Of a stretch of 64,000 bases of DNA, positions 2,715 to 60,937 are shown one piece after another. Every line of letters begins with the position of its first letter. Position 1 is the stretch's first letter. The notes under the pieces are model-generated. The model was not told the DNA's origin. It ran no database searches and saw only the letters and a list, made by a program, of their open reading frames with translations. Source of the stretch: Psychroflexus curvus (GTDB lineage: Bacteria; Bacteroidota; Bacteroidia; Flavobacteriales; Flavobacteriaceae); contig NZ_JAIQZF010000001.1 in NCBI RefSeq assembly GCF_020164585.1, positions 124,001-188,000 on the forward strand, in the 5' to 3' direction. The translations under genes were made by a program, and so were the position numbers.

Positions 2715-2892
2715 GATTTAATTAAGTTTTATAATTACGATATCGTTTTAGATTTTGGGTTTAATAATAATTTATACTAACAGGTTTTGATACATTATTA
2801 TTTAGAAGGTTCGTAAACATCGCTCAATGAAATTTTAAACCCAAAGCTAATTTTAATCTTATTAACAATAAACAACCTTAAATTTTAACACT

Positions 2893-5800
2893 ATGAAAAA
2901 AATGTTATTTAACTATCCCGTTTTAATACTCGCTATGATGTTGAGTTTTACGGGTTTTTCTCAAGTCACTGTTTCCGGTGTGGTGTCTGATGATCTTGGC
3001 CCTGTACCTGGAGTCAATATCATAGAAAAAGGCACATCAAATGGAACTGTTACAGGTTTTAACGGTGACTATACTATCCAAGTCCCTGAGGGCGCTACAT
3101 TAATTTTTAAATATGTTGGGTTCCAAACCAAAGAGGTAGTTGTTGACGGACAAACAACCATCAATGTAACTTTAGAAGAAGATACAGCTAAGCTTGAAGA
3201 AGTTGTTGTTATTGGGTATGGTACCACTACCGTAAAGGATGCCACAGGCTCGGTATCGTCTGTAACTTCTGATGAATTTAACAGCGGTGTTATTTCATCA
3301 CCAGAACAATTAATACAAGGTAAAACTGCTGGTGTACAGATTTCATTGTCCAGTGGTGAACCTGGAGCTGGTGCTGCTATAAGAATTAGAGGGTCAAATT
3401 CTATTAGATCCAATAACAATCCCTTGTTTGTAGTTGATGGTATACCGCTATCAGATGAATCTACAACCCCTTCTGCTGGAGGTATTGTAGACGGCGGTGA
3501 TTCTGCAAGGAATCCGTTAAGCTTTATTAATCCTAATGACATTGAAAGCATATCTGTTTTGAAAGATGCATCTGCAACTGCTATATACGGTTCCAGAGGA
3601 GCTAATGGTGTAGTGATTGTGACTACAAAAACCGGTAAATCAGGTAAAGGAGGAGTTTTTGGATTTTCATCTGATGTAAGTATTTCGAGTCCAGCAAGTG
3701 AATATGACTTGTTTAATGCTAATGAATATAAGACTAATTTTAATGAAGTAACTGGAAATCCAGTTCCAGGTTTTGATGATACTGGAGCTGATACAGATTG
3801 GCAAGATGTTATTACTAGAACTTCGGTCTCCACTAATAACAACTTAACTTATTCTAGAGCCTATAGCAGTGGGAATTTGAGAGCGAGTTTTTCTCACGCC
3901 AATCAAGAAGGTGTTTTAGAACAATCAGGGCAAGAGCGTATTGTAGGAAGAATTAACCTAACACAACGCTTTTTTGATGATAAACTTACAGTTAGAGTTC
4001 AGTCTTCCCTTTCAAGAGTAAATGACGAAGTACCACTTATAAGTAGTGAAGCTGGTGCTAGTGGTAATATTATAGGTGCTGCATATTCAGCTCCTCCTAC
4101 CTGGCCAAATGATTCTGAATTTTTTGTAGACGGGAATAGATTAAACCCTGCAAATATGTTAGCAAATTATAATGCTACTACAAATACAGATAGAGCGCTT
4201 CTTAATGGTTCTTTTGAGTATAAAATTACTAGTAATTTATCCGCTAAGGTAAACTTAGGTTATGATAAATCTGATTCAGAAGCTAATTCTGTTGTAACAG
4301 CTGACTATCAGAATAACGGTAGACTTACTGGAAATGGCCAAGCATCATTCAATACATTAGAGGCTACCAGTAAGCTTTTAGAAAGTACACTTAATTATAA
4401 AAAGCAATTTGATAATTCCAGTATTGATTTGATTGTTGGTTATTCTTTTCAGGATTTTAGACGTCAAGGTTTAAATTCCCAGGGATGGCAATTAGGCAAT
4501 AATTCAAACTTAAGTGAGAGTGTAAGAAATCTTCAGTCTTCGATTACTGGGTCCTACCAGCAATTTGGGTATGATCCAGATGGAAGTTTTGTCAATAGAT
4601 TATTTCCACTTAATGATACAGATGAACTTCCATCTTATTCAGAGCCTTTTGGTTCGTTATGGGTAGATACTTTCGATAATACAGATGAATTACAGTCGTT
4701 TTTTGGAAGAGCTAATTATTCGTTGAATAATAAATATTTATTTACGGCAACTGTAAGAGCAGATGGATCATCTCGTTTTGGTAGTGATAACAGATATGGT
4801 ATTTTCCCTTCTGCTGCTTTTGCATGGAAAATTTCTGAAGAAGATTTTATCGGAGAAAATATTTCAACTTTAAAATTAAGAACCAGTGCTGGTATTACAG
4901 GAAATCAGGCAGGATTGGGTTATGCTAATTATTTGAAAAGATCACGTTTTAGAGGACCAGGCATTCAGGATTCAGGAAATATCAATAGACCAGGTTTAGC
5001 GACTGTAGCAGTTCAGAATGAAGAATTAAAATGGGAATCAACACTAGATTTTAATATAGGTTTAGATTTCGGTTATGATTTTGATAGGCTAAGAGGTTCT
5101 TTAGATTTATACAAAAAAGAAACCAGTGATCTTTTGTTTAGACAAGCAGCTGCTGCTCCGGCATTTGATCCTTTTGTGTTTAAAAATTTAGATGATGGTA
5201 AAGTAATTAATAAAGGGGTTGAATTAAGTTTAGGATATGACTTTATTTATACTGAAAAATCTAAGTTTTCTATAGACTTCAATATCGCATACAACGATAA
5301 CACTGTAGAAGGCTTGAATGGTACTGTTGCTGATTTTGGTGCCGTAAACGGTCCAGGCTTAACAAATGCATTTGTACAGCGATTAGGAGAAGGACGTTCT
5401 TTATTCTCTTATTACATGGCAGAATATTCAGAAGACGCTAATGGAGTTCCTAATTTTTCATTAGATGATAAAGGGTTCGTCGATAAAGATGCTTTACCAG
5501 ACATAACTACAGGTCTTTCATTAAATTATTCTTTTGGTAATTTTGATGCTTCTGCGTTCTTTGCTGGTCAATTTGGTTTTTATGTATATAATAACACCGC
5601 AAATGCATTTTTAAATAGAACGGCATTTGAAACTTCTAGAAATGTTACACCTGAGGGCTTAGAGAATGTTTCTTCGGGAGTATCAACACTCTATTTAGAA
5701 AAAGGAGATTTTGTAAGGCTGCAAAATTTATCTCTTGGTTATAATGTCCCTATGAGTGAAGATAGTATTTTAAAATCTTTAAGATTTTCTTTGAATGGCC

Positions 5801-58523: not shown

Positions 58524-59411
58524 CTACCAGTCTATAAAAGAAATGCCCAGGCCAAAAGTGGTTTGATAGTGATTGTAATCAATTAAAGTTTCGCCGTAGC
58601 CCGTAAAAGCTTGAAAATGAAATCTAAGGTTGGATTTTACAGAGTATAAATAATTGATTTCCAGGCTGCCTCTGTTTTTATCAAAATCTAAAGCGTTTTT
58701 GCCAATCACATAGAGGCTATGTTTGCCAAAATTATAAATAACATTAGCTTCCATTCGTCCAATATAATCACTTATAGCAGGATTATCATCTTTATCTGAA
58801 CTCTCAATTCTTATCCAGGGTTTTAAATACAGTTGAAAATTATCTTTCTCAAAAGCTGCATGAAACATAATCCTATTCCAGCTCCTCGATCTTGGTAAAT
58901 CCCTTCCATTGGATTGGTGATTCAAAGCTATTCCAGCCATTCTCAAATCAATTCCAAATAGATTCACTTTCATCGGAAAATTTACGATGACTTCCGGTTC
59001 GTAATTCAATTCACGAAAAGGCCTTGAAAGCGGGTCATTGTAGATTTGCCAATTGGCTAGTTGTGTAAATCCCAGCCAAATATCACCATGTCCAAATAAA
59101 AAAGACTGGACTAGCTTGGTTTTAATACTCAGTTGAAACTTGGTTTCAACATTGTTATAATTTTGAGCCTTCTCAAAACTATTGTCAGGATTTTCACTCT
59201 GAGGCAATTTATTGGGATTACTGGACCATCTTACAGGTAACACATAAATAGGTTTGTAAAAAGTAAGTTTAAAGGATCCATTTTTATCCTCATCGTCCAG
59301 TTCCCAGCGTTGAGACATGGTCTTCTCTATAACTTGGTCTTCATCAAACACAGACTGTGAATGAGAAATAAACGTAAATAGTAAAAATAGAGCCGAATAT
59401 TTAATTTTCAT
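58524..59411 (-). CDS. outer-membrane phospholipase A (PldA-like)
   Basis: A protein of about 295 residues with a signal peptide (MKIKYSALFLLFTFISHSQS). The catalytic segment ALNHQSNGRDLPRSRSWNR carries the His and Ser of outer-membrane phospholipase A, embedded in a 12-strand barrel pattern with a C-terminal aromatic (GISFIDW). The frame opens 14 codons earlier at 59453, but ATG 59411 starts at the signal peptide. The enzyme cleaves acyl chains from misplaced phospholipids in the outer membrane. Monocistronic and divergent from the SatD-family gene. Confidence 0.88.
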   Translation of the reverse strand: MKIKYSALFLLFTFISHSQSVFDEDQVIEKTMSQRWELDDEDKNGSFKLTFYKPIYVLPVRWSSNPNKLPQSENPDNSFEKAQNYNNVETKFQLSIKTKLVQSFLFGHGDIWLGFTQLANWQIYNDPLSRPFRELNYEPEVIVNFPMKVNLFGIDLRMAGIALNHQSNGRDLPRSRSWNRIMFHAAFEKDNFQLYLKPWIRIESSDKDDNPAISDYIGRMEANVIYNFGKHSLYVIGKNALDFDKNRGSLEINYLYSVKSNLRFHFQAFTGYGETLIDYNHYQTTFGLGISFIDW

Positions 59412-59501
59412 GGAAAAGGTATAAGTTGCGAAAATAGAGAGAGTTAACTTCATTTTGGCTATTTTTACATCACAATTCTTTGGTAATTGTTTCAGATTTT
59501 A

Positions 59502-59605
59502 ATTCGATGTAAACATCGAATACTTGATAATTCGATGTTAGAGTCGAATATTTAAAAATTCGGCTTTAGAGTCGAATATTACATGATTTGATACATTAGT
59601 CAAAT
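59502..59605. promoter_or_regulatory. array of four 20-bp palindromic sites at exact 28-bp spacing
   Basis: Sites start at 59502, 59530, 59558 and 59586, each 20 bp, form ATTCGA-n8-TCGAAT. Site 1 is a perfect dyad with 9-bp arms (ATTCGATGT-AA-ACATCGAAT). Sites 2 and 3 share TTAGAG in the centre (site 3 has one arm mismatch). Site 4 has the diverged arms ATTTGA/TCAAAT. The array ends 13 bp before the SatD-family ATG, in the gap to pldA. It looks like a multi-site operator for a dimeric regulator, perhaps the adjacent HTH-bearing protein itself. Confidence 0.85.
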
Positions 59606-59618
59606 ATTTAAAGTGAAC

Positions 59619-60224
59619 ATGGTTATAACAGCTATTATTACAGGAGACATCGTTAATTCCAGAGAAGGTTCAAATTCGGACTGGCTGGAATCTTTGAAAC
59701 TTGCCTTAAACCGATATGGAGATCATCTGAAAGACTGGGAGATTTACAGAGGCGATAGTTTTCAACTTAAAACAAATATTGAAAAGAGTTTAGAGGCTTG
59801 TTTTTATATAAAAGCCAGTATTAAAGAATACAATTCCCTTGACGTCAGAATGGCTATAGGGATAGGGGAATCTAATGGATCCACAGGAAAAATAACAGAA
59901 GAGCAAGGCGAGGCATTTTACAGATCCGGGCAATGTTTTGAAAACCTAAAAGCTACCAATTTAGCAATAGAAACAGGTAATAAAGAACACAATACTGTTT
60001 TAAATTTGATGCTGGAACTCGGGTTGTTAACTTTCAATTCATGGACAAGTGTAGACGCGGTCACCCTCAAAACAGCCTTAAAACATCCAGGTCATACCCA
60101 AAAAGAAATAGCTAAGAAGCTCAATAAATCGGCTAGTACAATAAGTTTTACGCTTCAAAAAACAGGCTATAAGGAAATTCTAAAGTTACTGAACTATTAT
60201 AACAACTTAATCGTGAAGCCATGA
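59619..60224 (+). CDS. SatD-family protein with C-terminal HTH
   Basis: A protein of about 201 residues. N-terminal domain: AIITGDIVNSRE (D10), EIYRGDSFQL (G45-D46), DVRMAIGIGES (75-85) and GEAFYRSGQCFENLK (97-111). This order of motifs resembles the class III nucleotidyl-cyclase fold, though I cannot show activity. C-terminal residues about 157-196 (HTQKEIAKKLNKSASTISFTLQ) form a helix-turn-helix. The frame opens at GTG 59613; ATG 59619 gives the family N-terminus. The family name comes from an acid-tolerance locus of Streptococcus mutans; the role here is unknown. It overlaps the DUF3307 gene by 4 bp. Confidence 0.8.
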   Translation: MVITAIITGDIVNSREGSNSDWLESLKLALNRYGDHLKDWEIYRGDSFQLKTNIEKSLEACFYIKASIKEYNSLDVRMAIGIGESNGSTGKITEEQGEAFYRSGQCFENLKATNLAIETGNKEHNTVLNLMLELGLLTFNSWTSVDAVTLKTALKHPGHTQKEIAKKLNKSASTISFTLQKTGYKEILKLLNYYNNLIVKP

Positions 60225-60937
60225 TAAGCACTCTGCTGAAACTATTACTTGCCCATTTTTTGGGTGATTTTGTTCTTCAGCCCTATAAATGGGTACTGAG
60301 TAAAGAACGAAAAGGAGCAGGGTCAGCATATTTTTGGTTCCACATTGGAATTCATTTCTCACTCATGTTTTTATTTACTGGCTTCAAGCTAAGTATAATG
60401 CCCGTAATTACAGGCATAGGCATTAGTCATCTTGTCATAGACCTTCTGAAAATAAAACTAAAAAATCAGGTCTCTTCCATTTATCTCTTTTTTGCAGATC
60501 AAGCTTTGCATCTGTTAGTTATTTTTATGGCTCTTGGATTTTATTTCAATATAGACTGGACTTATTCTTTAAAGTTTCAAGATAAGTGGCTGATTCTTGT
60601 TTTAGCCTTTGTGCTTATCACTTATGTTTCTGGGGTAATTATGAAAATAGTACTTTCAAAATGGGATCTTCTCGATTTTGAAGGTGAAGCTTTAGAAAAA
60701 GCCGGCTGGTATATTGGGATGTTAGAACGCTTATTTATTTTTGGATTTGTGTTTTTAGAGTATTGGGCTGGCATTGGTTTCCTGATAGCTGCTAAATCTA
60801 TTTTTCGATTTAGTGATTTATCTAAATCAAAAGACAGAAAACTTACAGAATACGTTCTTATTGGTACTCTGCTGAGTTATGGCCTTGCTTTGGTCATAGC
60901 TCTGGGGAGTCTTCAGTTATGGTTTTATTTTCATTAA
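60221..60937 (+). CDS. DUF3307 integral membrane protein
   Basis: A 238-residue protein with about six or seven membrane helices. Conserved polar residues sit in or near them: H12, D16 and Q20 (LLAHFLGDFVLQPYKW), H41 and H45 (WFHIGIHF), H70, D74 and K77 (GISHLVIDLLKIKL), and D93, Q94 and H97 (FFADQALHLLVIF). Such a His/Asp set suggests a metal-binding intramembrane site, as in the YdjM-type membrane hydrolase group; this is inference. The start overlaps the SatD-family stop by 4 bp, so both are one translational unit. Confidence 0.85.
   Translation: MISTLLKLLLAHFLGDFVLQPYKWVLSKERKGAGSAYFWFHIGIHFSLMFLFTGFKLSIMPVITGIGISHLVIDLLKIKLKNQVSSIYLFFADQALHLLVIFMALGFYFNIDWTYSLKFQDKWLILVLAFVLITYVSGVIMKIVLSKWDLLDFEGEALEKAGWYIGMLERLFIFGFVFLEYWAGIGFLIAAKSIFRFSDLSKSKDRKLTEYVLIGTLLSYGLALVIALGSLQLWFYFH

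What the first reader, a model, noticed from the sequence alone, without database searches (positions are those of the whole stretch)
59502..59613. Four palindromic operators in an exact 28-bp tandem array
Four 20-bp dyads (ATTCGA-n8-TCGAAT) start exactly every 28 bp, stopping 13 bp before the SatD-family start. Site quality decays from a perfect dyad (site 1) to ATTTGA/TCAAAT (site 4). Spacing of 28 bp is about 2.7 helical turns, so neighbouring dimers would be rotated by roughly a third of a turn, suggesting a spiral or titrating assembly rather than same-face stacking.
Basis: seen in the sequence. Interest (0 to 1): 0.8.

Follow-up and report, generated by a model that had tools for sequence, protein, structure and literature searches.

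The report
SatD's own fixed-pitch operator array
Just before a little-studied two-gene unit lie four evenly spaced landing sites whose spacing is kept in distant bacteria and some archaea while their letters change in step with the DNA-reading helix of the first gene's protein, which suggests that this protein controls its own gene through a chain of copies held at a fixed distance.

Summary
In detail: four 20-bp dyads at 59502-59605 repeat every 28 bp, ending 13 bp before satD. This is the only strong 28-bp periodicity in the window, and the motif is nearly confined to this spot in the 3.0-Mb genome. Upstream of SatD genes the best self-similarity lag is 28 or 29 bp in 161 of 182 loci and 66 of 80 further ones (control: 13 of 507 other upstream regions); beyond the phylum in 8 of 10 loci, haloarchaea included. 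The sequence changes freely; the pitch does not. The half-site's base triplet co-varies with residues 171/174/177/178, on or beside the predicted recognition helix of SatD itself. Two residues predict half-site positions 4, 5, 6 in 41, 37 and 38 of 45 unseen loci (nearest relative by N-domain: 24, 26, 30). So SatD very probably binds its own array. Its N-domain has a cyclase/GGDEF-like fold with two invariant aspartates; its partner is a DUF3307 membrane protein. Best reading: cooperative autoregulation by dimers held at fixed pitch. Repression, cooperativity and nucleotide control are inferred, not shown. Decay of site quality is not a general feature, and nothing supports titration.

The parts
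59502..59521 (.). operator site 1 (distal), 9+9 bp dyad
59530..59549 (.). operator site 2
59558..59577 (.). operator site 3
59586..59605 (.). operator site 4 (gene-proximal, the most degenerate; a close variant is the last site in 6 of 8 own-clade loci, this one included)
59619..60224 (+). satD: SatD-like protein (201 aa); a GTG 6 bases upstream (59613) is a possible alternative start
   Evidence: PF16264 28.1 bits, curated cut-off 29
59619..60020 (+). N-domain of SatD, class III cyclase/GGDEF-like fold, invariant D10 and D46
60048..60164 (+). helix-turn-helix of SatD (predicted helices 144-155, 161-168, 172-182)
   Evidence: HTH_24 hit at 20.5 bits, just under its cut-off of 21.9
60132..60164 (+). 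recognition helix 172-182; residues 174, 177, 178 (and 171 just before it) co-vary with the operator
60221..60937 (+). DUF3307 membrane protein, overlaps the end of satD by 4 bases
   Evidence: directly downstream of satD in 170 of 191 loci

Best explanation
The array is the operator region of satD itself. SatD dimers (cyclase-like N-domain, C-terminal HTH) sit on each 20-bp dyad; the recognition helix reads half-site positions 4-6. Neighbouring dimers touch each other at a fixed 28-29 bp pitch, about 120 (28 bp) or 86 (29 bp) degrees of rotation short of full turns, so binding is cooperative and winds round the DNA. The assembly shuts down (or tightly sets) transcription of satD and the membrane-protein gene; in many Bacteroidota the gene-proximal dyad fills the spacer between the -33 and -7 promoter boxes. 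A nucleotide bound or made by the N-domain probably tunes the assembly. Shown by computation: the array, its pitch conservation, its near confinement to this promoter in the own genome, and the helix-operator co-variation. Inferred: dimer on dyad, cooperativity, repression, nucleotide control.
For: Pitch: best lag 28 in 125 and 29 in 36 of 182 loci, against 4 and 9 of 507 control upstream regions; 46 and 20 of 80 further loci (81 fetched, L286 has too little upstream sequence). Self-binding: operator distance correlates with recognition-helix distance after removing N-domain distance (partial 0.243, 0 of 999 permutations, largest 0.137), whereas N-domain distance adds 0.009 once the helix is known; the columns with most excess mutual information are 177, 174, 178, then 171 tied with 183; 174, 177 and 178 lie on, 171 just before, predicted helix 172-182. 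Residue 177 E with C at position 4 in 59 of 60, Q with A at position 5 in 19 of 19. Independent pairs on the best tree: E177/C4 11 same, 0 opposite of 19; T,S174/G5 14.3 and 0 of 22; N174/T5 10.2 and 1.0 of 16; in a scan of 157 columns x 4 base tests the 13 best rows are residues 147-177. Held-out loci: 41, 37, 38 of 45 bases at positions 4, 5, 6 predicted from residues 174+177, against 24, 26, 30 by nearest N-domain relative. Near single target in the own genome. Promoter overlap: TAnnTTTG lies at one phase relative to the dyad in 63 of 88 hits, and a TTG lies 28 (31 loci) or 27 (5) bp before that of the box among 45 loci with an in-phase box; TTTG follows the site in 32 of 110, 19 of 107, 8 of 96 going away from the gene. 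Pitch kept in 8 of 10 loci outside the phylum, each with 0 of 300 shuffles reaching it.
Against: No binding, expression or experimental structure data were found for it. On well-supported branches only 1-5 independent pairs exist and no sign test reaches 0.05; two of the five pairings are weak even on the whole tree (Q177/A5 median p 0.12, K,R177/C6 0.07). The -7 box is not recognisable in the window's own clade (7 of its 8 loci have no TAnnTTTG within 75 bp, the eighth has none in phase). 13 of 182 and 11 of 80 loci show neither 28/29 nor a doubled lag; S. insulae and Fusobacterium keep a DUF3307 neighbour without a visible array. The operator was called in 66 of 81 new loci only. Repression rather than activation is not tested.
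Confidence: 0.75

Rival explanations
1. The pitch is set by the promoter, not by SatD-SatD contact: in Bacteroidota TTTG-N20-TAnnTTTG has a TTTG-to-TTTG distance of 28, so a dyad between the boxes repeats at 28 bp.
For: The -33/-7 geometry fits exactly; consensus -33/-7 elements TTTG/TANNTTTG given in PMC6847099 (passages seen; the N20 spacer is my recollection, and that paper finds the -33 element much less evident).
Against: The same pitch occurs in Vibrio, Pseudoalteromonas, Salinivibrio, Sphingomonas and haloarchaea, which use other promoters (recalled), and between distal sites where TTTG is rare (8 of 96 at the third site from the gene).
Confidence: 0.15
2. Another regulator binds the array; SatD only happens to lie next to it.
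For: No binding assay exists.
Against: The operator tracks SatD's own recognition-helix residues beyond the rest of SatD and out of sample; among 56 neighbouring proteins no Pfam family was matched by more than 2, so no other regulator travels with it in that sample.
Confidence: 0.04
3. Independent sites that titrate or grade the response without contacts between dimers.
For: Three or four sites are usual (66 and 26 of 110 arrays).
Against: Independent sites need no fixed distance; best lags other than 28/29 and their doubles at score 18 or more occur in 1 of 182 loci.
Confidence: 0.12
4. A repeat without regulatory role: relic satellite, RNA hairpins, iterons or a CRISPR-like repeat.
For: Short tandem palindromes look like such elements.
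Against: Sequence turnover at constant pitch, in step with a protein helix; where a -7 box is seen at the last dyad the dyads lie upstream of it and so outside the transcript.
Confidence: 0.02
5. Purpose: the pair is a toxin-antitoxin-like or defence unit, SatD being the repressor and safety catch of a harmful membrane protein.
For: Two-gene unit with a first gene that very probably binds its own operators; patchy distribution (45 of 100 relatives; 66 of 296 phylum genomes by PF16264; 135 of 395 of the order by profile); a Sphingomonas plasmid copy lies next to genes annotated as Pycsar effector and cyclase; S. pyogenes satD is reported as accessory yet essential where tested (PMC11323703, passages seen).
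Against: No PADLOC model fits either protein beyond weak HTH-region hits. Of 56 neighbour proteins the PADLOC families shown (25 of 175) are restriction-modification and methylase models matched by 1 or 2 proteins each, no clear defence island. No phage or viral copy found.
Confidence: 0.25

Closest known systems
SatD family (Pfam PF16264), with DUF3307 (PF11750)
   Same: Full-length alignment; DUF3307 partner directly downstream
   Different: Window protein scores 28.1 against a cut-off of 29; neither the operator array nor the cyclase-like fold of SatD appeared in the listings and passages seen
Class III nucleotidyl cyclases / GGDEF / Cas10 palm domains
   Same: Fold of the N-domain, two aspartate motifs
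Autoregulated toxin-antitoxin operons with multiple palindromic operators (recalled)
   Same: First gene's product binds several dyads before its own gene; small two-gene unit
   Different: Cyclase-like domain, membrane partner, toxicity untested; I recall no such long-range conservation of operator pitch with drifting sequence there
MerR-type regulators, whose operator lies in the promoter spacer (recalled)
   Same: The gene-proximal dyad fills the -33/-7 spacer in many Bacteroidota
   Different: HTH is C-terminal and there are several tandem sites; MerR membership itself was not tested

Membership tests
SatD (PF16264) | Profile score at or over the curated cut-off | tested here: inconclusive
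   28.1 bits against 29, alignment over 4-204 of 211; 23 of the 26 members of A1, window included, match at E up to 1
SatD (PF16264) | DUF3307 partner downstream (a feature chosen here, not Pfam's) | tested here: met
   Window; 170 of 191 loci
Class III nucleotidyl cyclase | Cyclase-type fold | tested here: met
Class III nucleotidyl cyclase | Two metal-binding aspartates | tested here: met
   D10 and D46 invariant in 24 diverse proteins, aligned with the aspartate motifs of Rv1900c and Ma1120 at E 0.007-0.08; that these are the metal ligands there is recalled
Class III nucleotidyl cyclase | Substrate-specifying and transition-state residues; activity | not tested
   No residue-level comparison beyond; no assay
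Toxin-antitoxin operon | First gene product binds operators before its own gene | tested here: inconclusive
   Strong co-variation, but no binding experiment
Toxin-antitoxin operon | Second gene toxic, first neutralises it | not testable with these tools
   No assay
Pycsar defence | Matches models of the system | tested here: inconclusive
   No Pycsar-named hit at E up to 0.1 in PADLOC for either protein

The most novel reading that the evidence does not exclude
SatD is a cyclase-fold transcription factor that winds round its own promoter as a nucleotide-gated spiral of dimers whose pitch (28-29 bp, three dimers per eight DNA turns at 28 bp) has been frozen across Bacteria and Archaea while the DNA letters and the reading helix drift together: geometry is the conserved code and sequence is the disposable one.
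Probability: 0.35. Interest if true: 0.87.

Novelty: new variant of a known kind. Interest (0 to 1): 0.78.

Why it matters
Operators usually change in sequence and spacing together (general expectation, recalled). Here spacing is held across a phylum, and into other phyla and haloarchaea, while sequence turns over, so the two constraints can be separated. The pairings of helix residues with bases give a ready DNA-recognition code that can be tested by residue swaps, and offer many candidate orthogonal repressor-operator pairs. It also gives a first mechanism for SatD/DUF3307, a widespread unit for which the library searched showed almost no literature (2 papers for four family terms), and links a cyclase-type nucleotide domain directly to a DNA-binding assembly.

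Tried and rejected
Loose dyad pattern as a test: uninformative. Viral and phage copies of SatD: none found. Site decay as a rule: rejected. Neighbourhood as a functional clue: 56 of 78 selected ORFs (out of 238 flanking ORFs of the 80 named loci) were scanned; no Pfam family was matched by more than 2 of 56; the PADLOC list showed 25 of 175 families and the Pfam list 25 of 71, so rarer neighbours were not seen. Strict supported-branch version of the independent-pairs test: too few pairs. BFVD fold search: no clear match (best E 0.075). Profile of the whole protein against solved structures: only HTH-region hits, best E 0.16. Cyclase-like proteins of PMC4886424 (abstract, outline and passages seen) are DUF2652, another family; SatD was not seen in the passages. 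Rows dropped before counts: for co-variation 182 loci gave 161 with an ORF found by the A1 profile, 138 with score over 150, 133 distinct proteins, 126 with a called operator (dropped: L030, L144, L146, L152, L171, L177, L182); in the held-out test nine of 90 loci from already-seen genomes, 15 without a called operator and 21 at 90% identity or more. The 182 loci include about five genomes present twice (L005/L031, L007/L032, L011/L057, L013/L070, L017/L087) and near relatives; for 21 of them the start was set at the profile match, not at a start codon. The operator caller failed on the ATTCGA clade, so its eight members were called with an explicit pattern.

Full report
Observation. The looser dyad pattern is common by chance in this AT-rich window (115 found, 110.7 expected), but the periodic array is not: lag-28 similarity 35, reached by none of 60 shuffles, and the only place in the window with a score of 18 or more at lags 27-30. 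In the 3.0-Mb genome the pattern has five places, three in the array; the other two are a lone site overlapping the start of an ORF by two bases and one inside an ORF.

Setting. The window belongs to a genome grouped with Psychroflexus: two same-genus genomes have contigs of exactly the length of records titled P. gondwanensis and P. lacisalsi. The array lies between a gene matching phospholipase A1 on the other strand and satD; satD overlaps by four bases a gene for a DUF3307 membrane protein. satD scores 28.1 bits against PF16264 (cut-off 29), so it is SatD-like by profile and just under the curated line.

Pitch. In 110 loci (30 from whole genomes including the own, 80 from named records) the best self-similarity lag upstream of satD was 28 in 102, 56 in 3 and something else in 5. 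With more distant loci, 182 in all, it was 28 in 125, 29 in 36, 56-58 in 8 and something else in 13; 138 of 182 reached score 18 against 8 of 507 control regions upstream of other ORFs in the same loci, where 28 was best in 4 and 29 in 9. Of a further 81 loci 80 could be read: 28 in 46, 29 in 20, 56-58 in 3, other in 11. The loci are not all independent; about five genomes occur twice among the 182. Motifs differ: ATTCGA..TCGAAT in this genus, TATCGG, TATCTG, TATTAG, TATAAG, TATTCC, TATATG and others elsewhere, AACCA..TGGTT or GTTTCA..TGAAAC in more distant Bacteroidota (by eye). Outside the phylum ten loci were read: eight have 28 or 29 bp as best lag (two Pseudoalteromonas, two Salinivibrio, Vibrio lentus, Sphingomonas parapaucimobilis at 28; two haloarchaea at 29), with scores 14-30 and 0 of 300 shuffles reaching them at any lag; two show nothing (Sphingomonas insulae, Fusobacterium vincentii). 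The eight are about five lineages, and six of the eight score 14-17, so the claim beyond Bacteroidota rests on few independent cases.

Who binds. Among 126 distinct proteins (of 133, seven dropped) the operator follows the recognition helix: Spearman 0.329 against 0.230 for the N-domain; partial 0.243 given the N-domain (0 of 999 permutations) and 0.009 the other way round. With weights (effective n 52) the columns with most excess mutual information are 177, 174 and 178, then 171 tied with 183. Residue 177 E goes with C at half-site position 4 in 59 of 60, Q with A at position 5 in 19 of 19, and F, the window's residue, with CGA at positions 4-6 in 8 of 8 (all one clade); T or S at 174 goes with G at position 5 in 50 of 58. 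Shared ancestry is dealt with in two ways. On the best N-domain tree, independent pairs give E177/C4 11 same, none opposite, of 19; T,S174/G5 14.3 same, none opposite, of 22; N174/T5 10.2 and 1.0 of 16; the two rarer pairings are weak (Q177/A5 4.1 and 0 of 5; K,R177/C6 6.7 and 1.1 of 11); a scan of 157 columns puts only residues 147-177 in the first thirteen rows. Restricted to well-supported branches there are only 1-5 pairs and nothing is significant. Second, a rule trained on those 126 was applied to 45 unseen loci under 90% identity: 41, 37 and 38 of 45 correct at positions 4, 5 and 6, against 24, 26 and 30 for the nearest relative by N-domain and 12, 9 and 23 for the commonest base; the 15 loci without a called operator could not be scored. 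The AlphaFold model (pLDDT 91.4) was made afterwards and places helix 172-182 as the third HTH helix. Six genomes with two SatD paralogues had both loci fetched (L131/L170, L118/L163, L129/L176, L117/L179, L120/L166, L159/L181): in five pairs the two arrays read by eye have unlike motifs, and in the sixth L120 shows no array.

Promoter. Of 110 loci 63 have TAnnTTTG within 75 bp of the start; 63 of 88 such hits lie at the same phase, the box beginning in the last two bases of a dyad unit; of 45 loci with an in-phase box a TTG lies 28 bp (31) or 27 bp (5) upstream of the box's TTG. The periodicity itself makes repeated TTTG likely, but TTTG is commonest after the gene-proximal site (32 of 110, then 19 of 107, 8 of 96). 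The -33/-7 consensus TTTG/TANNTTTG is from PMC6847099, which also finds the -33 element much less evident (passages seen); the -7 box is also in PMC9723704 (passages seen). The window's own clade has no clear box, so its transcription start is unknown.

Reading. Fixed pitch with drifting sequence, in organisms with unlike promoters, is best explained by contacts between neighbouring SatD dimers. Autorepression is the likeliest outcome given the overlap with promoter boxes in relatives. Whether a nucleotide gates it is open. The report of satD as an accessory yet essential gene in Streptococcus pyogenes (PMC11323703, passages seen) would fit a repressor whose loss unleashes its partner, but whether a DUF3307 gene stands beside it there was not checked.

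Novelty. Searches for SatD, DUF3307, PF16264 and related terms gave no paper on this array or on SatD as a DNA-binding protein in the listings seen; the lists were capped at 8-20 rows and the library holds open-licence papers only.

Noticed in passing
L192 (Sphingomonas insulae plasmid) 2832-4747: A satD-DUF3307 pair lies next to genes annotated as Pycsar effector, cysteine-rich protein and adenylate/guanylate cyclase; this copy has no visible array.
   Followed up: partly
L188, L189 (haloarchaeal plasmids): satD-DUF3307 pairs with GTTCGCC/GGCGAAC-type sites at 29-bp pitch in Archaea.
   Followed up: partly
L122-L140, L156-L160: Distant SatD subfamily without full DUF3307; the 10 examined carry a short downstream ORF resembling only the C-terminal part of the DUF3307 protein; many have 29-bp arrays.
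   Followed up: partly
161 loci: Arrays called at 29-bp pitch more often have odd-centred dyads (10 of 25) than those called at 28 bp (8 of 136).
   Followed up: no
L030, L149, L161, L162 and related loci: Loci reading TATAAG often use 29 bp although relatives use 28; a natural place to study a pitch change.
   Followed up: no
window 58524-59453 (-): A phospholipase A1-like gene diverges from the array; whether the array also affects it was not tested.
   Followed up: no
literature, PMC11323703: satD of Streptococcus pyogenes reported as accessory (178 of 249 genomes) yet essential in transposon screens (passages seen).
   Followed up: no
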